Assembly (NCBI GenBank): GCA_019787685.1
Contig: JAHNUO010000065.1
Location: 1-64,000, forward strand
Direction of reading: 5' to 3'
Length of the DNA stretch: 64,000 nucleotides
Source: Chiua virens
Lineage: Eukaryota > Basidiomycota > Agaricomycetes > Boletales > Boletaceae
A program made the position numbers and the translations under genes. Positions 38,771-53,899 of the stretch are shown here, one piece after another. The notes beneath the pieces were generated by a model, which searched no databases, was not told the origin of the DNA, and saw only the letters and a program-made list of their open reading frames with translations. Every line of letters begins with the position of its first letter. Within the stretch, counting starts at the first letter, position 1.

Positions 38771-39050
38771 TTACCAGGGTTTATCATCAACTCCACTACC
38801 ATCAACATCTTCTGGAACCTCTGACTCAGGGAAGTCAGGGAGCCAATATGACCCCATCAAACTAAGATGATACCCTGGAGGCAGGTCTTCTCCCTCTATA
38901 ACTGTAAGAGGAGGCAACACATTCTGCAGATGGCAGAAGCGATCTACATCTTCCTCACTGAAAGCATCCAAGCGTTCTTGGTAGATGTCCAACTGATGCC
39001 CATGTTGGTCATCGTGAACAGTGCATGCTATGTCCAATGAAGGATCATCC
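38771..39050 (-). pseudogene. Exon of an unrecognised minus-strand gene
   Basis: It is open and acidic (DIACTVHDDQHGHQLDIY ... LPDFPESEVPEDVDG). It ends at a plausible donor GTAAATAC and begins near a TSD copy of LTR D. Together with 39738-40117 and 43833-44307 it formed one gene. I do not recognise the family. It might be a host gene or a transposon protein. Confidence 0.45.
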
Positions 39051-40122: not shown

Positions 40123-40683
40123 TGTTATATACTGCTCCATTCTCCGTTTCCTCCAGATGTAACTCTGGATCTCTTAGCCCATAACTCCGGGTCAATCACC
40201 CTCAGGACGCAACTCTGTGATCCTGGACCTCCGTTACGTATATATGTTTCCTCTTTTATTTTAGTACATAACCTGTGTCTCACTTATGTACGAGCACAGC
40301 TCTGGCTTTCTCAGTACCCAACTTACCTCTGGCTATGTAGTTTCCCAATCTTCCATCTTACTCAGTTCTTACCAACTCTGTTACTAATCTCCATTCCACT
40401 CTGAGTATATAAACTGTAGTACCCTGACTGTGTACCCTTAGTCTGAATATTAGTTTATTTGTACGACTCACTCCAAACACTCCGAGAAGTCCTTGACGGC
40501 CTTCACTCCACTTGACTCCACTTCATGTGTTGAGTCTTATATCTACCTCTGTTCTCTGCACCTCCGAAATATAGGGACAGACTGTGACAAGGGCGCACCA
40601 CATACGGTAAAGCCAAGTCCTGTCTGACACTACAACTCCAGAGATCTGGAGTTGACTACCTCTGAGTGGCATGGTCTCTAACA
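40123..40683 (+). repeat. 5' LTR of element A
   Basis: TATATAAA lies at 40406-40413 and AGTCTGAATAT at 40440-40450, the predicted transcript start. Confidence 0.92.
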
Positions 40684-40685
40684 GT

Positions 40686-40696
40686 ATATTCAGACT
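40686..40696 (+). promoter_or_regulatory. Self-priming PBS of element A
   Basis: ATATTCAGACT, 2 nt after the LTR, is the exact reverse complement of AGTCTGAATAT at 40440-40450 in the LTR. Confidence 0.78.
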
Positions 40697-41179
40697 ACTT
40701 CTTGTCATCAGTCACCTCACAACCTATGTCCTCTCACACCTGCCCTCAGACCAGTACTACTGGTATCTCTACCCTGAACCTATCTGACACTACCTGCATC
40801 CAATCCCTCAGGAACCTCCTCAGTCATCAACGAACTCCTGAAGTCATCGAAGATTTCCAAGGTTTCTCCACTCAACTCATCGCATCCTCCGCCTCTTGAG
40901 CACCCATATTCCTGGGTGCGCGAACTCCATCTTCCCGTTATCAATCTCCGAGTATTCCAGGCTCCTCCAGGGGACATCCCTCTGATGAACCCAACTCTGG
41001 AGATGACTTCTCTGACCCCGAAACCAAACTCGCCCCTGACGATACCTATGGGCGATTGACAAACGCAATCCAAAGTCTCACTCGCGCCTCTCATCACCCC
41101 TTCTCTAGCTCCTCCCCTCACACTAAAGTCAGAGAACCTGATCAGTCTGATGGGACAAGCCCCCACAAACTCTGAGTCT

Positions 41180-41345
41180 TTCTCATTCAATGTGAGTTGA
41201 ACTTCCAGGACCGTCCCAAGGCTTTCTGCTCAGACCGTGCCAAAGTCACATTTGCACTGTCTTATCTGAACTGTGGCCTCCCAGGACATAAGGCTAAGGA
41301 CTGCCCAAAGTCCACTTCTTGCTCTGTGAAGCCCCATGCTACATG
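41180..41345 (+). pseudogene. Gag-like zinc-knuckle remnant of element A
   Basis: The frame reads RAKVTFALSYLNCGLPGHKAKDCPKST. It has the C-x4-H-x4-C half of a CCHC knuckle, but the first Cys of the CxxC pair is replaced. It is preceded by a short hydrophilic stretch and followed by stops. It is the only Gag-like signature in the element. Confidence 0.65.
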
Positions 41346-42159
41346 AGCAACTCCGGCATCCTCCTCCAAGGACACCAACTAAGCCTCTGACCCCCCCAAC
41401 TCCATGTATTCTGAAGGAGTGTTACCTTCCACTGCACAACAAGGAGTATACCCAGAATCAACGCATCCAGTCTTTTCGACACTCTGGACCTCATGAACTT
41501 CAGTTCATGTCATCACCTCCCTTCTTCTTTTTACCCCGAGAGAGTTCAAGGACATGATTCTTCACCTCGATACTCCCTACCCCTCCACTCCTCAGAACTC
41601 TGTTCACCCCGACTCTCAACTCCGTTTACCCCGACTCTCATCTCTGTTACCCTGACCTCCTCATAACTCCTCCGACCTTACCCTATGATCACTCTGACCA
41701 CACTCCGTGCACCTCCGTTGGGTCCCCCTGTTCTCTTGATTCTTGGATACCACTGATCTGCTTGCTAACACTCCATTGAGTGACGAGTTATGGACAGTAA
41801 CTTTTTCTGTTCACCTGAACATGGACACCAACACATATGAGCTCAACTCTGCGCCTTTGGGTGTTCCCTCTGGCAACTCCAGCTACTACTCTGATTCTCT
41901 AGGTTACTCCAGTCATCCCTCCTTGCTTGACATTGAAAACTCCATGGAACCTCAGCGATGTATACCGTTCTTTCCTGGATTACTTTGAAAGGCACTCACA
42001 TCCCTCCTCCTTTGTACCCTGAACTCCCTCCGTCCACCTCTGCTGCTAGACGCTGGGACATCCAGCCTAAGAGGGGGATATGGACCTCCCATTCCCCACA
42101 CTTCCATCTCCGCTCACTTCATTTTCCTCCAAGAATCGTATCTTGTTGCTTTTTGCAAC

Positions 42160-43112
42160 TTCATAAGTACATTCTACACTACTCTACTTCTTCCTCTGCA
42201 TCCGCCAAATCACCCATCTCCACCTCTGTGCCCATCTCCATGAGCTCCTTTTCACCCACCTCTGCATTGACATCCTCATCATCCACTCCTCCAGCTTCGC
42301 TCCGTACACCTCCTCCACCTTCAGCTCCACAAGCCTCGATAGCAGAGTGTTCTGGTAATCCAGACGCCTGTTTTGCGACCTCATCACCGCTTGGAGATCC
42401 CTTATGGCCTCTGTCATCTGCTTTGCAACTCCTGCCCATGACTCCGCTGCCTGTACAAACGTCTCCAGGAGAGACGAGCCCTGAGCCCTGCTTGGACCAG
42501 CAGACAATGACTCGGTCCTTGCCTTCTTCTTCGACTTTGGCACCTCCTCCGAATCCTCCACCCATTTCCTCCAGTGCACCTTCTTCTCCATCACCTCCTC
42601 TCTGGGCCTCTCACACTTCACCTTGGCGTCTTGACAAGGCTCGCAAGCCGTCCACTTCCTCCCTGTGCCCAGTACGCACTCCAGGCCTTGGTCCTCGCAC
42701 CTGGTACATGCCTCCCACTCTGACCCTCGCGCCTTCTCCTTCTCCTTGCCCTTTTCCTTGGGAGCACTCTACTCTGCACGGACCTCCTCGGCCTATTAAC
42801 TCTGTCAGCTCCAGAAGCTAGACGTTGTGAGCCACTTACCCTCTTCTTGGCCTCCTCAACCTCTCACACCTTGTGCTCCTCCGCTTTCCTCAGCTCCTCC
42901 ACAGCCCTCCTTGCTTTCTCTGCCTCCTCTGCCTTGCACCTCACCTTCTCAGCCTTGCGCGCCTTCTCAGCTTCCTCCGTTCCTCCGCTTCCCTCCGAAC
43001 CTTCATCTATCATCACTGCTCCATCACCTTCGCATCAAACAGCTCATCGCTGTCATTGTCGCACTCCTTGAGATGTGTGTCGTCCCACTCCTTGATGCTA
43101 CTGATATCAGAC
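42160..43112 (-). pseudogene. Antisense ORF in element A: coiled coil plus paired Cys cluster
   Basis: The minus strand reads from ATG 43112 (MSDISSIKE...), with an acidic start, a long Lys/Glu/Arg/Ala coiled-coil (REAEERRKAEKARKAEK), and a double C-x2-C-x6-C set (CTRCEDQGLEC ... CEPCQDAKVKC). A Ser-rich linker and a second helical region (ESWAGVAKQMTEAIRDLQAVM) follow, the last part open from 42621 to 42184. Several stops and frame changes lie between the blocks. The Cys pattern resembles a fungal Zn2Cys6-type cluster, but the spacing is not canonical. It is transcribed, if at all, against the element. The function is unknown. Confidence 0.6.
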
Positions 43113-43304
43113 ATGGTTGGAATTAATGGTTAAGGAATGAAACAGCCATCTGCCAGACTTATATACAGAGCATGCCACCCACACTCCAAATTCAAACTCC
43201 ATACATCCATCACCTCCACTCACACTTTGTTCACGCTTTGACTCCATTTTGACTATTGTTCCTCGCTAAAGGCCTTCAAGGGTTCAGGCCTAAAAGGGGG
43301 ATAC

Positions 43305-43827
43305 TGTCATATACTGCTCCATTCTCCATTTCCTCTGGATATAACTCCGGATCTCTTAGCCCATAACTCCAGGTCGATCACCCCTCAGGACGCAACTCCA
43401 TGATCCCAGACCTCCGTTACGTATATATGTTTCCTCTTTTATTTTAGTACATAACCTGTGTCTCACTTACAAGCACAGCTCCGGCTTTCTCAGTACCCGA
43501 CTTACCTCCGGCTATGTAGTTTCCCAATCTTCCGTCTTACTCAGTTCTTATCAACTCTGTTACTAATCTCCATTCCACTCCGAGTATATAAACTGTAGTA
43601 CCCTGACTGTGTACCCTTAGTCTGAATATTATTTTATTTGTACGACTCACTCCGCTCAACTCCACTTCATGTATTGAGTCTTATATCTACCTCCATTCTC
43701 TGCACCTCCAAAATATAGGGACAGACTCTGACAAGGGCGCACCACATATGGTAAAGCCAAGTCCCGTCCGACCCTACAACTCTGGAGATCCAGAGTTGAC
43801 TACCTCTGAGTCACACAGTCTCTAACA
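43305..43827 (+). repeat. 3' LTR of element A
   Basis: It starts TGTCATATAC directly after the AAAAGGGGGATAC tract and ends TCTAACA before TSD GGGAT. It lacks about 38 bp (the GACGGCCTTC region) present in the 5' LTR. Confidence 0.92.
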
Positions 43828-43832
43828 GGGAT

Positions 43833-44307
43833 AGATAAAAGATGGTCGTCGAACAAATCATATTAATAGTAAAGTATTATGTAGACTATACGTTAACAGG
43901 CACATCCACCTCTACACTATTCATAATCGCTTCTGCTTCAGCTGCCATTCTTGCTTGATCTTCCTCACTTCTGACTCAGCTCGTAACATGATCGCCTCAA
44001 CACAAGACAACACCGCCCAGGTCATGTCATCGTAAAATGGACTCTTTATCTCCTCCACGTACAGGACAGGGTCCACAGGGTCATGATTGGATGACTTGTC
44101 ATCAAGAGACATCTTCCCAAATTGGGGGAACACCGCTTCAGCACACCTATACAACATGTCAGAATAAGCAACAAACACAAAGAAAAACATACTGCTTGCT
44201 CTTAAATGCCTCAATGGCCATCTTGATTGTCTCATTAGTGAGATGTCACTTGGCAATTTCTTGGCAAGACTTGGAAACGACATATGCTGTCTGTTCACTG
44301 TTGCCAA
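43833..44307 (-). pseudogene. Upstream exons of the unrecognised gene broken by element A
   Basis: The minus strand is open over CAEAVFPQFGKMSLDDKSS ... YVEEIKSPFYDDMTW ... AIMLRAESEVRKIKQEW, ending at a stop near 43921. Upstream, near 44150-44300, another frame reads MSFPSLAKKLPSDISLMR. The composition is protein-like, but I recognise no family. From 44308 to 44611 I see only short frames. Confidence 0.4.
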
Positions 44308-44611
44308 GTATCTTCACCCTATCTGCAGGGCTGAACCAAGCAGATGCCTAGTGAATGTGATACATAAATTGGCCAGCATGGGATTCTTGACTGCCAAGTT
44401 CTGGGTACCCAAACGGCACAGGTATAGCGTGAATGAGAACAGAGCCTCCATTATGGACCTCTAATGGAATAACTTCCGCACAGAACAAGACTCTGGAATG
44501 TAAGGAATTCATCCAATATGTGACGTTCAGGTGCAGTCATAACGGGAATGAAGAAAGAACATATATGCAAGGTAACATTATATATACATATTACATAATG
44601 TTGTAATGCGG

Positions 44612-44908
44612 AGTTAGAGCGTGTGACCATCAAGGGTCCACTTTACCCTATTCAGGATTAATATGGGACATAAACACAGCAAACATAAGACAGAGATGGA
44701 ATGTGTGACTATCAATGGTCCACTTTACCCTATTCTGGATTAATATGGGACGTAAACACAGCAAATGTAAGACAGAGATGGAACGCATGACTATCAAGGG
44801 TTCACTTTACCCTATTCGGGATTAATATAGGACATAAACACAGCAAACGTAAGACAGAGATAGAACATGTGACCATCAAGGGTCCACTTTATCCTATTCG
44901 GGATTGTT
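44612..44908. repeat. Four-copy 82-bp tandem repeat upstream of the Rep locus
   Basis: Copies start near 44620, 44703, 44785 and 44867 with (G/A)TG(A/T)CCATCAA(G/T)GG. Each contains CCACTTTACCCTATTC, GGATTAATATGGGAC and ACACAGCAAA. The last copy is partial and merges into the region preceding the origin-like hairpin. Confidence 0.88.
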
Positions 44909-45012
44909 GATTAAGGGTTGCATAGGTAATCCCCCCAATCTGGACAAACAGCATGCTGGGGATGCGCTGTGATTGGACAAACACCAATCCTATAAGACTT
45001 GGATGGGAATGG

Positions 45013-45051
45013 GGGGGATGGGCCATAATATTAAACTTGGGCCCATCCCCC
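45013..45051 (+). promoter_or_regulatory. CRESS-DNA-virus-type replication origin stem-loop
   Basis: A perfect 12-bp stem (GGGGGATGGGCC at 45013-45024 pairs with GGCCCATCCCCC at 45040-45051) encloses a 15-nt loop containing TAATATTAA (45026-45034). Geminiviruses and genomoviruses start rolling-circle replication in a TAATATTAN-type nonanucleotide on such a hairpin. The direct repeat GGACAAACA (44942 and 44975) lies upstream and could act like iterons. The rep gene starts 8 nt downstream. Confidence 0.72.
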
Positions 45052-45059
45052 TATCCACT

Positions 45060-45830
45060 ATGTGTTATCCATTCATAGTAACATCTTCCCATGCCTGCTA
45101 TCCACAACAACACTCAGGCACAGCAGTCAATGGCGAAGACCTTCCTATCAATGAGTGTCCCGCTATATGCAGATTTCGATTCAAAGGACTATACACCTTC
45201 CTCACCTATGCTCAAGTAGGGGAACTTGAGAGGGAACAGGTAATTGCCTGCTTTGAAGAGTTAGGAGCAGAGGACTTCATGATTGGTAAGGAGTGTCACC
45301 AGGACGGAGGTAGGTAATCACATGACTCTCAATTGAAATCAACTAACACTCCATATATAGGTATCCATTACCATGCTCTAGTCCACTGGAAGGAGCATTT
45401 CCGCTTACGTGACACTACCATATTCGACCTGGTAGTAGATGGGCAGCGGTATCACCCGAACATCCGCACTATCCGCACTGGTCACGGGAACCTCTTCCAT
45501 GTATTCACCTATGTAAGAAAGGAGGGTGATTTCGAAGGGGACCTGGTAATAGAGGAGCAGGGTAGGGGTGCTGGGGGTGCAGATAAAGAGGTATGGGTCA
45601 ACACCATGGCTGCGCCAACAAAGGAGGAGTTCATACAGACCCTCAAGGATGGAGCGCCAAATGACATCATCAAGTCCTGGACGAACGTGGCGGCATTCGC
45701 CGAATACCAGTACGGGCAGAAGGCCATTGTGCCTTATGAGTCGCCATTCGAATTCGACGGGGACCTGATCCCGGAGGCATTGCGTAACTGGGCGACAGTG
45801 GAACGCTTGGCAGAACATAGACCAAAGTGA
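45060..45830 (+). CDS. rep: Genomovirus/geminivirus-like Rep endonuclease domain, spliced, helicase missing
   Basis: Exon 1 is 45060-45309 and exon 2 is 45361-45830, joined by a 51-bp intron (GTAGGT...TATATAG) that keeps the frame. Rolling-circle motifs occur in order: motif I FLTYAQ, motif II with HYHA (the HUH metal site), a geminivirus-Rep-like box around YHPNIR, and motif III YVRKEGD (catalytic Tyr, Lys). A linker with a YESPF block follows. The ORF ends at TGA just where the Walker A of the SF3 helicase should begin, and none follows. Known Reps nick the origin hairpin, and one lies directly upstream. The TYAQ form favours genomoviruses, which infect fungi, over plant geminiviruses. The ATG at 45060 gives a longer N-terminus than usual, so the true start is uncertain. 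This is an endogenous, truncated viral copy. Confidence 0.85.
45310..45360 (+). other. Intron within the Rep gene
   Basis: GTAGGTAATC...CATATATAG is 51 bp, with consensus fungal donor and acceptor. Removal restores motif II in frame (DGG then IHYHA). Confidence 0.8.
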
Positions 45831-47140
45831 GACTCACGTTACCTAACATCACCCTAACATAACGACTAAACCCATTCGCGTTATTGTAAAATGCAGATGA
45901 ATTTCTGGCCGTTTGGGATCGCTGTATTGAAACCCCTCTTCAAAGCCCAGTTTCCAAATCTGGGTGTGTCTACAACACAAGTCAAGGGGGACCTTACTAT
46001 CCTGGCAAATTTTCTCCAACTTCCACACCTCACGTCTGCACTGCAATCTGTTGGGAAAGGAGGTGTAAAGTTATCTGCTGGGAATGATTTCCGGTGAACC
46101 ATTCGGTCAGGCGCAGCTTTCGGGTTCATCGCGATTCTACTGTTCTTCGTGTGTGATTTGCATTCTCGTCCGCCTCTGTTTGTTTTATTTTTCGATCAGG
46201 ATTAGACCGCTGAACGGGCGTGCGATGCGGGCGTGGTCGACATTGACTTGAACACCACACGCGGCAAGTCATGCAGTTTGTGCTGCAATTCGTCTGTTTC
46301 GGGGACCAGACTATGTTCGAAACGCTTGGTAAGTCGCTCTGTGAGTTTCGTAACATGCCACATCAACAGTTCAATTGTCCAGGGTTCGTGAGCAACGTCG
46401 ATGAATTGCTTGACTTTACATTCTTCGTGGTACCTGCCGTGGTGAGGCGCCCGCACGAACCACTCCTAAACCGGCTGGTTCTGTTGTGCTCTCGCTAGGG
46501 GATGAGATCTTTGCTATGGAAGATGCGGATGGAGCACCCCTCGAATTGGATTCTAGCACGAGCGAGGAGATGCTCGCGTCCATGTATGGCTGGATCTGCG
46601 AAGCCTCTAGTGACGCCTTGGTCAGTAACTCTCATGGATATCTCTACCTCACTCTTACGTCTATTTAGCACGGACCTCAAGGCGATATGGCGGAGGCAGA
46701 GAAATCGCCGGAGGGCAGACGCATACACGGAGTCTCAATAACAACGGTGTCGCCTTGGGTCCGGGTGCGAAGTTGGTCATCAGAAATAATGCAAACGCAA
46801 GCACGAGTACGCTTGCAAGTGTACCCGCAAGGCCTCTGCAAGGCGCGGGTATCTTGCCACAGCTACGATATGCCCGGACAGTCTTGGCGATCCGATGATT
46901 CACCAACACTACGTTATGTCCCGTCAAACCTTTCTGTGACTCAGAAAATAGAGCCAGTCCCAGTGCTGATCGCATGTCGCACAAGTGGCGCTGTTCAAAC
47001 TACCCCACACAAGCTGGCCCAAGGTGTTCGCGGCTGATCATGGGTACGCCCGTTCGTCAGACCTCGAATGGATCTGCGTCCACCAGCGCTCGTGGTGGGA
47101 ACCTGCGGAGATCATTGTCTGTGCCTTTTCTACGCAACCT
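45831..47140. other. No recognisable gene
   Basis: Frames of 60-130 codons exist on both strands (for example 46202-46456 minus and 46661-46984 minus), but none shows motifs I can name. The stretch may include decayed host gene pieces like its neighbours. Confidence 0.45.
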
Positions 47141-48620
47141 GGCATTTATCCTTGCGTTGCAACTGTCAACCTACCTGGGCACACAGTTATCACCAAGGGA
47201 ACGCAGACATATTACCCCGAGGAAGGACGATGGGTCGAATCGTCTACCCAAGACGTGGTCCAGATGCTCGGATGGGAGAAGGAATGTCTCTCCGGAACTC
47301 GCGAGGCCTTACTCCAAGAGATCTGCGACGTTTTCAGCAATCCCGATGAAGTGTCGGACGACCGCAACACGATAATTTCAGTGGAGGCACTACCATCATG
47401 AATGACTTGGAGCTCCAGTACTACCTATCGCTTATGGACCAACAACTGCCCATTGAGTGGCAGCTTGTCTTCCAATTGGTAGATAGCTTGAATGCAGAAA
47501 ATGTGCTTGGGACGGTTGGGAATCGCATGCAATGGTTGGGATACACATCTGTGAGTGGTTTCGCTTTACTTGTTGACTTGGTCTATTCCTAACGTGACCA
47601 GGTATGTGGGTACGCTCAAGTCCCCAGGCCTGTATGGTGTTGGTGTTGATTACCTGGAGGACGATGACGGCCTGGTTCAAAAGCGTGCTGATATTGTTAC
47701 CTCTGCGACAGCTCTCCTTGAAGAAGTGTCATCTCGTCAAGTACGAGCGTGCTTTAAGGCAGCGCTAAAGCACACGCACTACTGCGTGACCCATAACTCG
47801 ATGGCAATGTATAACCAACACTCGCAGCCAACGGTGTCGACGTCACAGCTGTTCCGGGTGTTTGCGCTCTCGAACGGAATCAAATTGCTACCTGCAAGTG
47901 AGCGAAGAGTTCGCCATTGATTCATTGGTTGATTCATCAGGCTATTTCAAGGTAGAACAAGAGGAGAAACTGGAACTTGCGGAGCTGTTTGAACGAGTGC
48001 CTATCACAAGTGTCTGTGACCCCGCTGCCAAGACTAATGTGCTCTTGCCAGCATATTATCTCAGCTCAAACTTGAAGGTGAGTTCTCCCTCGCTTCACTC
48101 TTTGTCCTTGCCACTCATGGATACGGTTTCATCTAGGATTCGCGTTAGTTGCGGACATGGTATTCATGCAGCACGCAAAAAGACGCATATTTATCTCGCA
48201 TCGTGCAAGATGGAGTGGTGAATGTGAGTCCCGATGTCTCGGTGGAGGTGTCTTATGCCTGGCTACACCCCTTTGCCCTTCAAGGGCGTGCTGCAAGAAG
48301 TGGTGCAGGAAGGCCGAGGGGAAACAATTCGTAAGTCCATCGAGGCTATCTGGGCCTATCTCTGCTGAGGTGCTGGCGAAGCTTCCTCTTTGTTCTAGTC
48401 AAGGTAACAATACCTTGATCGGAATCCCCCTGAGCTTAGAGAACTAGTCGCTATTCCCAATGCCGGGCGATTGGTCCATGACTTTCCTAAACTACAGTAC
48501 GCGTTCATCTCTTTTTTCTCGGGAGTGTTTTGACTGAAACTCCCAGATTGCAAGCACAAGCACTTCCAATGCACGGTCCTGTGCCTCCCAATCACTACAT
48601 TTCAGTGCTGTATATGTCTA
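47140..48620 (+). pseudogene. BRR2: BRR2 (U5 snRNP helicase) pseudogene fragment
   Basis: Ordered blocks of the Ski2-like spliceosomal helicase BRR2 appear on the plus strand. They are helicase motif V/VI ([25 protein letters not shown] then QDVVQMLG), GRPQHDNF, and the winged-helix/Sec63 approach (LELQYYLSLMDQQLPIE; LKSPGLYGVGVDY; HNSMAMYNQH; FRVFALSN). Then come EEKLELAELFERVPI, FALVADMVFMQ, RKAEGKQF, and NPPELRELVAIPNAGRLVHDFPKLQ. Introns remain, for example near 47551-47601 and 48077-48136. Frames change repeatedly, and about 90 bp is inserted after QMLG. BRR2 unwinds U4/U6; this partial copy cannot. A functional paralogue must lie elsewhere. Confidence 0.82.
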
Positions 48621-50430: not shown

Positions 50431-53400
50431 CATCACATATTCTGTTCCCCTCTACACCTCTCAACTCACAAAGCCCGTCTTCCACGACAACCTCATACTT
50501 ACGGCTACCAGCAATAACGTGCTTGCCGCTCTCAACGCTACCGATGGGCGCATAGGTCTGCTTGGTTTCGTTCTCCCTGTCCAACACAGTAACCCCGGTT
50601 CTTGCAGTCTGGCGAAGCATACATGATGCCCAAGATGCCATCATGGGATTCAAAGTGCACGACGACAGTGCGTTTTATTTCATGTCGGTGTGCGCGCTCT
50701 CGCTGATGATACCTCAGGCATATATGCGCTCTCCGGGCCCGCTGGGTCCAGTCTGCGCGTCTACGATATATCGACAGGCGACCTTGTGCGTGAAACCCGG
50801 CTGCACCCTCCCACCAAGGCCAAAGCGAACGACCAACCCACGCTTGGTATCGCGTTGGCTCAGAGTGGGGACCACGCAGTCGTGCTCACGAACGGGGATA
50901 CGGTGCGATGCATCCATTCCCGTACTGGAGACATGGCATGGCAATGGCAGTCAGAAGACCAAGGGTGAGTCAAGACGTGCATATAACCGCGCGCTCACAT
51001 CGAGCTTTCCTAGTTCCCTCATCATGTACACTCAGATCTACGCCAATACCCCCGCCTCAACGCTGTACGTCGCAGGCTTCGCGAAATCCGTCGCATCGTA
51101 CACGCTACACGTCACGACGCTCGATTTAACTACGGGGGAAGTTATTTCCACTGTGAACATACCAGCAAGCATAGCCAATACCTTGACGGATTTCCTCTTG
51201 CTCGGCCCTTCTAAAGCCTCTACGACGAGTACGCGCTCCGATGCTAACGCTAATGATTTTGGGCCCGCTCTGGTTTGGCTTTCACCATCGGCCACATCAA
51301 AAGATGCACCTCTATCTCTTTTCTCGGCTGCACTTTCTCCTTCTCTCAAAGGCAAAGTTCAGACCGTTCCTAACACGTCGTACAAACGCATACGAGACGT
51401 CGACCTTTTGGGACATGGTTTGTTTATGGCTCTCCGGGACGACGGTGTTGCAGAACTTCTGGGTTATGAAGCGCGCGGTTCGGCAATTGGTCGGGTATGG
51501 GACTTTGGGGATGTGGTACGTCGCATTTGGTTGATGAGAGTTGGGCGAAGAATTACTTACTGAGCGAAACACATATAGACACCATCCGCGTCTATCCCAG
51601 AGTCACACTTTTTTGCGACGCTGAACCAGAACGGGAACCCGTGTATAGGCAAGGTGGCTTGGTCCAACATTCATAACGCACGTGCTTCGTTTTATTGAAC
51701 ACGTTCGAGAAGGACAAATCAAATTGTAGCAAGCGATTCATGAAACATTCGAAGCAAATTTGATCGGGGGAACTGGCCAAAGGACAGCCTTCCCAGTCCC
51801 CTTTGATACCTATGAACACGGCACTATCAAACACGTATGGGTCTTGGGTTCGTTCTTATTCCCTGCCAATCTCACTTTTATTTAGGTCGCGTTCTCTCCC
51901 TCTTCCCCTACACCCACGTCGATCAACGAGACCACCCACAAACTCTTTATTGTAACTTCAACAGGATCTCTGCAGTTGTGGGACCACGATGTGCTTCAGT
52001 GGGTACGCGAGGAGGCTCTTGCTACTGTGCAAACCGCTACCGTTATCGAGCTGCCACCTACAAGAGAGGAGGTTTTAGGCGGTGTAGGAGCTGGTGGTAC
52101 GAGGGAAAGCTTTTGGAACAAAATTGTACGACAGGTTAAGGATATTAAGGTGCGATTACTTCTAGCTAGATCACTGATCATTGTACTAACTCATCTTTTC
52201 AGAACCCACCCCACTACATCGTTCATTTTGTGACACGATTTGTAACCGGGTCATACGCGTCTCCATCTTCTCCAATATCATTGGCTTCATCTGTCCCTTC
52301 CACATTCACGATACCCCACTTCGTCCCTCCGCATTTTCCTGATGCTCTTGCAGCTCTCCGTGATACCTTTTCTTTCCGTCAGCTACTTATTACTTCGACG
52401 GCACATGGGAAGATCTTTGCATTGGATACCTCAACTGGTGCGATTGTGTGGAGTCGAATCCTTGGGCTTGGGTGGGCAAGGCAGGTCGGTGGGAGGATCG
52501 TGCCCGTGAAGGCAGTCGTGGTCCGCAGTGTTGAGACAGGAACGGAAGAGTGTGTTCCTGAAGCTCGAAAAGAGATAGCATTGATCACCCAGAGAGTCGC
52601 TGATGATGTTCGTATTTCTTTCTATGGGTTTGGGTCCTGCATCTGGTTGATTGACGGACACTCTAGATAGACATTGGTGGACACTGTTGTTTTCCACTTT
52701 GACCCTCTCACGGGAGAGGACATCAAGACCGTCACATCAACTGACGGGGAAATCGAAAGTGCTCGTATCAATGTCAAAGGTGCGAACGGCAGATGGCTCA
52801 GCCCCTTGGAAGGCGTGGATGCGATTGCCGGACCATTGATAGATGTATTCGTTGTCCCTGATAGCAAGGATACGATTGGGACGCTGGATGAATTCCTACA
52901 GGTCAGTCCCAGACGTGTTACTATAGTAATGTATTCGTCTAAACCCGCCCCCCAGGTCCGACTTTACCCTGATACCCCTGACACACATGCCTCCCTAACA
53001 GAGTTGGCCCCGAAAATCCACCTTGCATTGCGAGCTGGCACACAAGTCCTTGGTCACGAGCTGGGTTTGAATGATGAGCTATCATTCTTCCACGTTGCCT
53101 TCCCAACATGGGGTGTTTCCTTTGGCGAAGAGGAAGAAGTGACCTCGATTATCAGGAGCTCCCACAAGCACCGCGACGTGGCGAGCGTTGGGAGGGTGAA
53201 GGGAGATCGGACCACGTTGTACAAATATCTAAACTCCCACCTGATTGTGGTGATATCTGCTCCGTCGCGCGGTTCCTCGTCATCTTGTGGTCTACACGTG
53301 GTCGATACTGTGAAGGGCACGGTATTGTACCATGTCTCGTTGCCCGCCGTCGATGAGAAATGCGACATCAAAGCCGTCCTGGATGAAAATTGGCTGGTGT

Positions 53401-53899
53401 ATTCGTATTATGATGACAGCAACGAAGTCGGTGGTGCCAAGGGTTATCGTGTTGTCTCGGTGGAGATGTATGAGGGGTATGGACCGGACCAGAAGATTTC
53501 GAGGTGCGTGCATCTTGATGTCCGATACGCTGAGAGACCTACATGTTGCGAACAGTTCGGACATCACCTCGTATTCGAACAAGACCATCGAGTTCTCAGT
53601 ATATGAACAAGCTTTCGCAATGCCACATCGCGTTACTGCTATTGCGACGACGTCGACGAAATTCGGAGTATCGACCAAGGATATTATAGGTAGGCCGTGA
53701 TCCTTTAAGAGGGATCTCCACCTCGTGTCTCATTCGCGCAGCATCAAGTCACAAAAACAGCATTCATTCCATTCCACGACGTCTGTTAAACCCGCGCCGA
53801 CCGAACAGAAAACCAACCAGCGAATAAACGGAGGAAATGCTCGTGCAGTACGACCTAGTACTGCCGGACGATGGGCGGCTTGTGTTGTCCCACTATTAT
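50430..53899 (+). pseudogene. EMC1: EMC1 (ER membrane complex subunit 1) pseudogene, intron-containing
   Basis: EMC1 is the large lumenal beta-propeller subunit of the ER membrane insertase. Exons read in order with good splice sites: 50430-50555, 50608-50667, 50718-50964, 51014-51515, 51579-51834, 51886-52149, 52203-52607, 52671-52901, 52956-53502, 53556-53689 and 53742-53899. Signature blocks are NNVLAALNATDG, YTLHVTTLDLTTGEV, GSLQLWDHDVLQWVREE, VSRI-type GAIVWSRILGLGW, TTLYKYLNSHL and LLPDD-type VLPDDGRLVLSHYYE. The signal peptide and N-terminus are missing. Exon 51579-51834 has a one-base frameshift near 51692 and a TAG near 51727. The last exon has TAA at 53825, and the C-terminal membrane segment is absent. 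Intact introns show DNA-level duplication, not retroposition. Confidence 0.9.

What the first reader, a model, noticed from the sequence alone, without database searches (positions are those of the whole stretch)
44612..45830. Endogenous CRESS-DNA-virus unit: Rep endonuclease gene beside an intact TAATATTAA origin hairpin
Seen: a perfect 12-bp stem with TAATATTAA in the loop (45013-45051), and 8 nt later a spliced ORF with rolling-circle motifs I, II and III and a geminivirus-Rep-like YHPNIR box. Known: geminiviruses and genomoviruses nick such hairpins with such Reps, genomoviruses infect fungi, and endogenous Rep-like genes occur in fungal genomes. Inferred: a replication module (origin plus nickase, without helicase) has been kept as a unit. 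The ORF stops exactly before the expected Walker A. The 82-bp repeats and GGACAAACA pairs upstream could be Rep-binding iterons. An origin retained together with an open endonuclease domain is unusual and might reflect co-option or a very recent insertion.
Basis: partly seen in the sequence, partly recalled or inferred. Interest (0 to 1): 0.88.

Follow-up and report, generated by a model that had tools for sequence, protein, structure and literature searches.

The report
Fossil viral replication gene with origin
A fungus-like genome carries a broken-off piece of a circular DNA virus, namely half of its replication gene plus the hairpin where copying would begin, of a kind already known from fungal genomes and unusual mainly because the hairpin is still in place.

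Summary
A perfect 12-bp hairpin (45013-45051) lies 8 nt before a two-exon reading frame (45060-45309, predicted 51-nt intron, 45361-45830) with Rep motifs I, II, GRS-like box and III and a weakly matching central domain. The hairpin is far beyond chance.

On the strand opposite rep the loop reads TAATATTAT, the genomovirus nonamer, in ambisense polarity.

The frame ends before the expected helicase because the locus is cut there. The stop lies in a possible splice donor, and within about 60 nt a 5'-truncated, frameshifted RCC1-BTB gene copy begins. No PF00910 helicase match lies on the contig.

Best reading: a partial endogenous ssDNA-virus integration, truncated by a rearrangement. 'Kept as a unit' and 'very recent' are not shown.

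A second, divergent Rep catalytic domain on another contig, with other introns and no helicase recognised, sits between 391-bp inverted repeats with TA at both ends.

Endogenous geminivirus-like Reps in fungi, a basidiomycete among them, and a Rep-bearing truffle transposon were published in 2011 (PMC3198968). This is a new member of a known kind, with an intact origin as the notable extra.

The parts
45013..45051 (-). origin-like hairpin: 12-bp perfect stem, 15-nt loop; the strand opposite rep reads CAAGTTTAATATTAT in the loop
   Evidence: arm plus loop start single copy in the assembly at up to 3 mismatches
45025..45033 (-). nonamer TAATATTAT, flush with the 3' stem arm on the strand opposite rep
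   Evidence: sequence; nonamer of SsHADV-1 (PMC10731770) and of 6 of 12 Genomoviridae rows shown of PMC6186406 (passages)
45060..45309 (+). rep exon 1, with motif I FLTYAQ at 45198-45215
   Evidence: aligns in order with the second Rep; no family match alone
45310..45360 (+). predicted 51-nt spliceosomal intron (GTAGGT, CTAAC, TAG)
   Evidence: its removal would put DG|GIHYHALV in frame (read by eye, exons not joined); no RNA evidence
45361..45830 (+). rep exon 2: motif II HYHALV (45366-45383), GRS-like IFDL...HPNIR (45420-45467), motif III FTYVRKEGDF (45504-45533), central domain (45585-45806, below cut-off), ends RPK-stop
45827..45832 (+). GTGAGA overlapping the stop codon, possible splice donor toward a lost helicase exon
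   Evidence: sequence; inference by analogy with the repA/rep splicing described in PMC11053556 (passages)
45891..47147 (+). 5'-truncated, frameshifted copy of an RCC1-BTB gene family; recognisable similarity starts near 45880
44941..44950 (+). TGGACAAACA repeat, first copy
44974..44983 (+). TGGACAAACA repeat, second copy
44620..44905 (.). 82-bp tandem repeat, 3.5 copies; relation to rep unknown
   Evidence: no other copy found by the DNA search of 44600-45900, which skips very common words
40123..43827 (.). LTR retroelement left of the unit, flanked by GGGAT on both sides; independent insertion

Best explanation
This is a partial endogenous copy of a genomovirus-like ssDNA virus (geminivirus-genomovirus group). 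The ancestral replicon would have worked as genomoviruses and geminiviruses do (recalled): Rep binds near the origin, nicks the hairpin loop at TAATATT/AT on the strand opposite rep through the motif III tyrosine, and starts rolling-circle replication with its C-terminal helicase. What remains in the chromosome is the hairpin and the first part of rep (nuclease plus central domain). A rearrangement with its breakpoint between 45831 and about 45891 removed the 3' exon(s) carrying the helicase and joined rep to the middle of a broken RCC1-BTB gene copy. Shown: hairpin, motifs, domain matches, no PF00910 match on the contig, junction with a truncated host gene copy. Inferred: viral origin through integration, the splice donor, loss of a former helicase exon. 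Today it is most likely inert as a replicon.
For: Gemini_AL1 and Gemini_AL1_M matches in the same frame. Weak matches to the Rep chains 7vg8 (E 0.0084) and 1l2m (E 1.1) over motif II to motif III. Motifs I, II, GRS and III in order, like those printed for two geminivirus Reps in PMC11053556 (passages). Hairpin far beyond chance with the genomovirus nonamer on the strand opposite rep. Junction with a truncated RCC1-BTB copy: four relatives stay similar to one another upstream of the point where the window copy begins, and in the one tested (L033) that upstream part codes for RCC1 repeats. No match on contig C65 among 22 PF00910 matches genome-wide. A second Gemini_AL1 locus in the same genome. 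Endogenous geminivirus-like Reps in fungi, including Laccaria bicolor, those from fungi grouping with SsHADV-1 (PMC3198968, passages and sections 7 and 8).
Against: Both Pfam scores for the exon 2 frame alone are just under the curated cut-offs. No phylogeny could be built, so genomovirus rather than another geminivirus-like lineage rests mainly on the nonamer and the fungus-like context; only 6 of 12 genomovirus rows seen have exactly this nonamer. No capsid-like gene was recognised: the two minus-strand frames tested match nothing. No viral relative was found in the collections searched. The rep frame is open over about 240 codons while the neighbouring gene copy has decayed, which a simple inert fossil does not predict. 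An intron inside the catalytic domain is not typical of known viral reps (recalled).
Confidence: 0.74

Rival explanations
1. A Rep-driven mobile element (virus-derived transposon): the nuclease nicks its own hairpin and the host supplies the helicase, so origin plus nuclease is the complete element.
For: Two Reps without recognised helicase in one genome; the second is the only gene recognised between 391-bp inverted repeats (97.7% identical) with TA at both ends. A geminivirus-like Rep transposon is reported in Tuber melanosporum (PMC3198968 section 8).
Against: The window unit is single copy at DNA and protein level in these searches. The inverted repeats listed around it are short and imperfect; one 13-nt, 92% pair (44898-44910 and 47334-47346) loosely brackets it and looks like chance. 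A target duplication was not systematically sought. Its right end is a junction with a broken host gene copy. The second element is also single copy.
Confidence: 0.12
2. A domesticated gene: the truncated Rep (RepA-like) is expressed and kept by selection, for example to interfere with replication of related viruses, and the hairpin is a passive leftover or a promoter element.
For: Open frame over about 240 codons with codon-position GC bias in exon 2 (0.60/0.38/0.62; in exon 1 only 0.56/0.40/0.43) and a canonical-looking 51-nt intron; the adjacent RCC1-BTB copy has lost its frame. Expression of some endogenous Reps is reported in PMC3198968 (passages).
Against: The neighbour may have decayed before the junction formed. 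No close paralogue.
Confidence: 0.1
3. Chance or artefact: spurious frame and hairpin, or a misassembled viral contig.
For: Exon 1 has no family match; the exon 2 frame is below the per-protein cut-offs.
Against: Two domains in one frame, four motifs in order, a matching hairpin 8 nt away (0 of 82 shuffled sites comparable), collinearity with the second Rep, and host repeats on both sides.
Confidence: 0.02

Closest known systems
Endogenous geminivirus-like (SsHADV-1-related) Rep sequences in fungal genomes (PMC3198968: 5 in Laccaria bicolor, 42 in Tuber melanosporum)
   Same: Geminivirus-type Rep in a fungal genome, often fragments, some inserted in host genes or transposons.
   Different: Here an intact origin hairpin with the genomovirus nonamer sits 8 nt from the frame; the terms 'stem-loop' and 'nonanucleotide' occur 0 times in that paper's main text.
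Genomoviridae (SsHADV-1 and relatives)
   Same: Nonamer TAATATTAT in the origin, rep on the opposite strand, RCR motifs I-III and GRS box, a putative intron in the rep of one member, BcssDV1 (PMC10731770, passages).
   Different: No helicase and no capsid gene recognised, chromosomal, intron within the catalytic domain.
repA/rep of one citlodavirus and one mastrevirus-like genome (PMC11053556, passages)
   Same: A separate repA gene besides a rep made by splicing out a 99-nt intron; the window frame without helicase ends at a possible donor.
   Different: Here no downstream helicase exon is found; host gene sequence follows instead.
Geminivirus-like Rep transposon of Tuber melanosporum (PMC3198968 section 8)
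   Same: Rep inside inverted repeats, like this genome's second Rep on C74.
   Different: Tuber element: many copies, 37-bp repeats, two transposase ORFs, no obvious target duplication. The C74 element is single copy with 391-bp repeats; only three pieces of it were scanned for families, none a transposase. The window unit has no such structure.
Replitrons (recalled; one search listed three papers that mention them, none read)
   Same: Helicase-less HUH nuclease as the enzyme of a mobile element (recalled).
   Different: No terminal structure or copy family found for the window unit; no sequence comparison was made.

Membership tests
Endogenous genomovirus/geminivirus-like Rep | RCR motifs I, II, III and GRS-like box in order | tested here: met
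   read by eye in the separately translated exons; Gemini_AL1 E 1.1e-4, 22.6 bits, cut-off 24; over cut-off with neighbours
Endogenous genomovirus/geminivirus-like Rep | central (oligomerisation) domain | tested here: inconclusive
   Gemini_AL1_M 18.6 bits, E 0.0021, cut-off 24; 20 bits, E 0.024
Endogenous genomovirus/geminivirus-like Rep | SF3 helicase (Walker A/B, motif C) | tested here: not met
   no PF00910 match on C65; the only two GxxxxGK[ST] matches in six frames of the window lie at 38814 and 20589. Fragments are accepted as endogenous viral elements, so this lowers completeness, not kinship
Endogenous genomovirus/geminivirus-like Rep | nonamer in a hairpin loop, on the strand opposite rep | tested here: met
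   nonamer
Genomoviridae (as a virus) | capsid protein gene on the opposite strand | tested here: inconclusive
   minus-strand frames 43924-44307 and 44348-44509 match nothing; no capsid profile was searched on its own
Genomoviridae (as a virus) | Rep groups with genomoviruses in a tree | not testable with these tools
Virus-derived transposon | several copies in the genome | tested here: not met
   the window copy only
Virus-derived transposon | terminal repeats and target duplication | tested here: inconclusive
   only short imperfect inverted pairs in 43500-47500; target duplication not systematically sought
Helitron | Rep fused to a helicase, with Helitron ends | not tested
   no PF00910 match on the contig, but that is not the Helitron helicase family; Helitron ends were not sought

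The most novel reading that the evidence does not exclude
Helicase-less, intron-bearing geminivirus-type Reps form a family in this fungal lineage, as mobile elements or host genes. The window copy with its matched hairpin is a minimal self-nicking unit that uses host helicases, and the C74 copy between 391-bp inverted repeats is its transposon form.
Probability: 0.1. Interest if true: 0.75.

Novelty: new member of a known kind. Interest (0 to 1): 0.4.

Why it matters
It adds a case in which a fungal viral fossil keeps both the origin and the enzyme domain that acts on it, in correct polarity. That allows the origin type of an ancient lineage to be matched with its Rep. The companion locus, a Rep alone between long inverted repeats, bears on how viral Reps become transposon genes.

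Tried and rejected
Walker A or helicase remnants downstream: none found. Other rep copies: exon 2 frame, exon 1, the whole unit, Gemini_AL1, Gemini_AL1_M and Viral_Rep gave only the window and C74; the C74 exon found only itself. The Viral_Rep search rang in none of its 14 controls, so it shows no absence. Exogenous relatives: none confirmed in viral contigs (4 and 22 pattern stretches, none confirmed), none in phages, and in plasmids 2 hits at E 0.6 and 7, the former a phytoplasma plasmid. The pattern scan gave 8 loci on contigs of 10,148 to 147,706 bases; I did not examine them. A structure model of the exon 2 frame alone was useless (mean pLDDT 33.8) and was not searched further. PHROGs gave nothing useful. 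Rfam gave 0 matches in the window at its gathering scores. Iterons were considered and not accepted.

Literature: ten searches. No title or abstract start in their listings shows a basidiomycete Rep with its origin retained, but the library holds open-licence papers only. I opened five papers: passages of PMC3198968 plus its sections 7 and 8, and passages only of PMC6186406, PMC10731770, PMC11053556 and PMC3187698 (the last on integrated geminivirus DNA in Nicotiana). None was read whole.

Full report
What is there. The window is bases 1-64000 of contig C65 (74,435 nt) of a 48.3-Mb, 136-contig assembly. Gypsy-like frames, LTR elements, short introns and host genes such as an EMC1-like gene suggest a fungus, probably a basidiomycete; this is my recognition, was not tested, and the species is unknown. 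At 45013-45051 lies a perfect 12-bp stem with a 15-nt loop. Eight bases later a frame starts with ATG at 45060, is broken by a predicted 51-nt intron with standard fungal-looking signals (45310-45360), and ends at 45830.

Is the hairpin chance? No. Of 3 TAATATTA sites in the window one has a 12-bp stem (the others 6 and 1 bp). Of 82 such sites in 150 dinucleotide shuffles none has more than 6 bp. Nine other fetched loci (76,507 bases) have no TAATATTA at all. Three hairpins in the window have stems of 12 bp or more with loops of 6-21 nt, but only this one carries the nonamer core. The arm plus loop start is unique in the assembly at up to 3 mismatches. Folded as single-stranded DNA, the region is 4.2 sd more stable than its shuffles.

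Polarity. The core is self-complementary, so the other strand must be read too. There the loop is CAAGTTTAATATTAT and TAATATTAT abuts the stem. TAATATTAT is the origin of SsHADV-1, whose Rep is encoded in the negative sense (PMC10731770, passages). It is also listed for 6 of the 12 Genomoviridae rows shown of a table in PMC6186406; the other six rows carry four variants (TAACATTGT once, TAACACTGT twice, TAATGTTAT once, TAATACTAT twice). All 12 are marked type II. That type II means a nonamer on the strand opposite rep is recalled. So hairpin and rep stand to each other as in genomoviruses.

Is the protein a Rep? The frame with exon 2 matches Gemini_AL1 (E 1.1e-4) and, further on, Gemini_AL1_M (E 0.0021). 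Both are slightly below Pfam's per-protein cut-offs. The query began 27 bases inside the predicted intron; both matches lie after that part. In the genome search the catalytic match with its neighbours in the frame passes the cut-off, and none of the 14 control genomes, which are prokaryotes, rings. The PDB chains 7vg8 and 1l2m, both named as Reps, align over motif II, the HPN box and motif III, weakly (E 0.0084 and 1.1). Exon 1 has no family match, but two stretches of it (FRFKGLYTFLTYAQ and VGELEREQ to HQDG) align in order with the genome's second Rep (E 0.006 and 0.004, each for a single comparison), as does motif II to HPN in exon 2 (E 6e-4).

Why it ends before the helicase. The frame ends RPK-stop, and the stop codon lies inside GTGAGA, a possible splice donor. 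In the citlodavirus and the mastrevirus-like genome of PMC11053556, repA is listed beside a rep spliced over a 99-nt intron (passages); whether that intron sits at exactly this point was not tested. Downstream, sequence similar to other places in the genome begins at 45891-45896 by BLAST for four relatives and, by eye in a global alignment, near 45880. Among the relatives, L034 and L035 are about 97% identical to L033 over 5.5 kb, and L036 about 83% over 2.7 kb, both stretches running on upstream of the point where the window copy begins. In L033, the one tested, this is a gene with RCC1 repeats and, further on, a BTB domain. BLAST of the whole window found no 5' half of it anywhere in the window. 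The window copy also has a frameshift and stops. So a breakpoint at 45831 to about 45891 joins rep to the inside of a broken host gene copy. PF00910 has no match on this contig. Of its 22 matches elsewhere, all start at model position 1 or 2, 19 end by position 37 of 105, and 3 pass the cut-off with their neighbours; the family also rings in all 14 controls, so these look like P-loops of other proteins. The 'exact' ending is thus best read as truncation in or near an intron.

Left side. An LTR element at 40123-43827 is flanked by GGGAT on both sides, with LTRs 86% identical (37 mismatches and 42 gaps in 570 columns), and belongs to a large family (54 matches listed, window included, 40 of 381 candidates scored). 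It inserted independently. Between it and the hairpin lie sequence for which no other copy was found (43837-44600) and an 82-bp tandem array. No capsid-like frame was recognised: the two minus-strand frames tested match nothing in Pfam or PHROGs.

A second Rep. C74:13519-13716 (minus) matches Gemini_AL1 at 31.2 bits, E 2.3e-7, and the PDB Rep chain 7vg8 at E 2.7e-4. Its exons, as I read them, carry motif I (YLLTYSQ), motif II (HWHVLV), HPNV and a motif III-like YIHK. Its predicted introns lie at other places than that of the window gene: one right after motif I, where the window gene has none, and none at DG|G, where the window gene has one. It ends shortly after motif III. The gene lies between 391-bp inverted repeats (9 mismatches, 97.7%) with TA at both outer ends, 1,623 bp in all, and no other copy was found. 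The nonamer core does not occur in the 10 kb fetched around it (L037).

Working model. Shown: origin-type hairpin, Rep nuclease domain, no helicase match on the contig, truncation junction. Inferred: the ancestor was a genomovirus-like circular ssDNA replicon; a partial copy entered the chromosome; a later or simultaneous rearrangement cut off the helicase exon. As it stands the locus could at most encode a nickase without helicase; whether it is expressed is unknown. The open frame next to a decayed gene copy is the main fact that a plain fossil reading leaves unexplained. Either selection, or a younger age of rep, or earlier decay of the neighbour would account for it.

Known or new. Endogenous geminivirus-like Reps in fungi are known: PMC3198968 lists 5 in Laccaria bicolor and 42 in Tuber melanosporum, and describes a Tuber transposon with Rep and 37-bp inverted repeats. 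Integrated geminivirus DNA is also known from Nicotiana (PMC3187698, passages). The present locus is a new member of that kind. The retained, correctly oriented origin is the notable extra.

Noticed in passing
G000:C74:12965-14587 (locus L003, 947-2569): A 1,623-bp single-copy element with 391-bp inverted repeats (97.7% identical), TA at both ends, whose only recognised gene is a second geminivirus-type Rep catalytic domain with predicted introns and no helicase.
   Followed up: partly
40123-43827: LTR retroelement flanked by GGGAT on both sides, LTRs 86% identical; 54 matches listed for its right part in the assembly, itself included (40 of 381 candidates scored).
   Followed up: yes
45891-47147: Decayed, 5'-truncated copy of an RCC1-BTB gene family; relatives on C66 and C48 are about 97% identical to the one on C30.
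   Followed up: yes
44620-44905: 82-bp tandem repeat, 3.5 copies, 88% matches; no other copy found in the assembly.
   Followed up: partly
931-967: Perfect 15-bp stem (TTTTGCGCAAATCAT) with a 7-nt loop, unrelated to rep.
   Followed up: no
50556-53606: Frames of an EMC1-like host gene right of the rep locus (Pfam EMC1_C 23.3 bits, cut-off 27; EMC1 N-terminal model 11.6 bits, cut-off 34).
   Followed up: no
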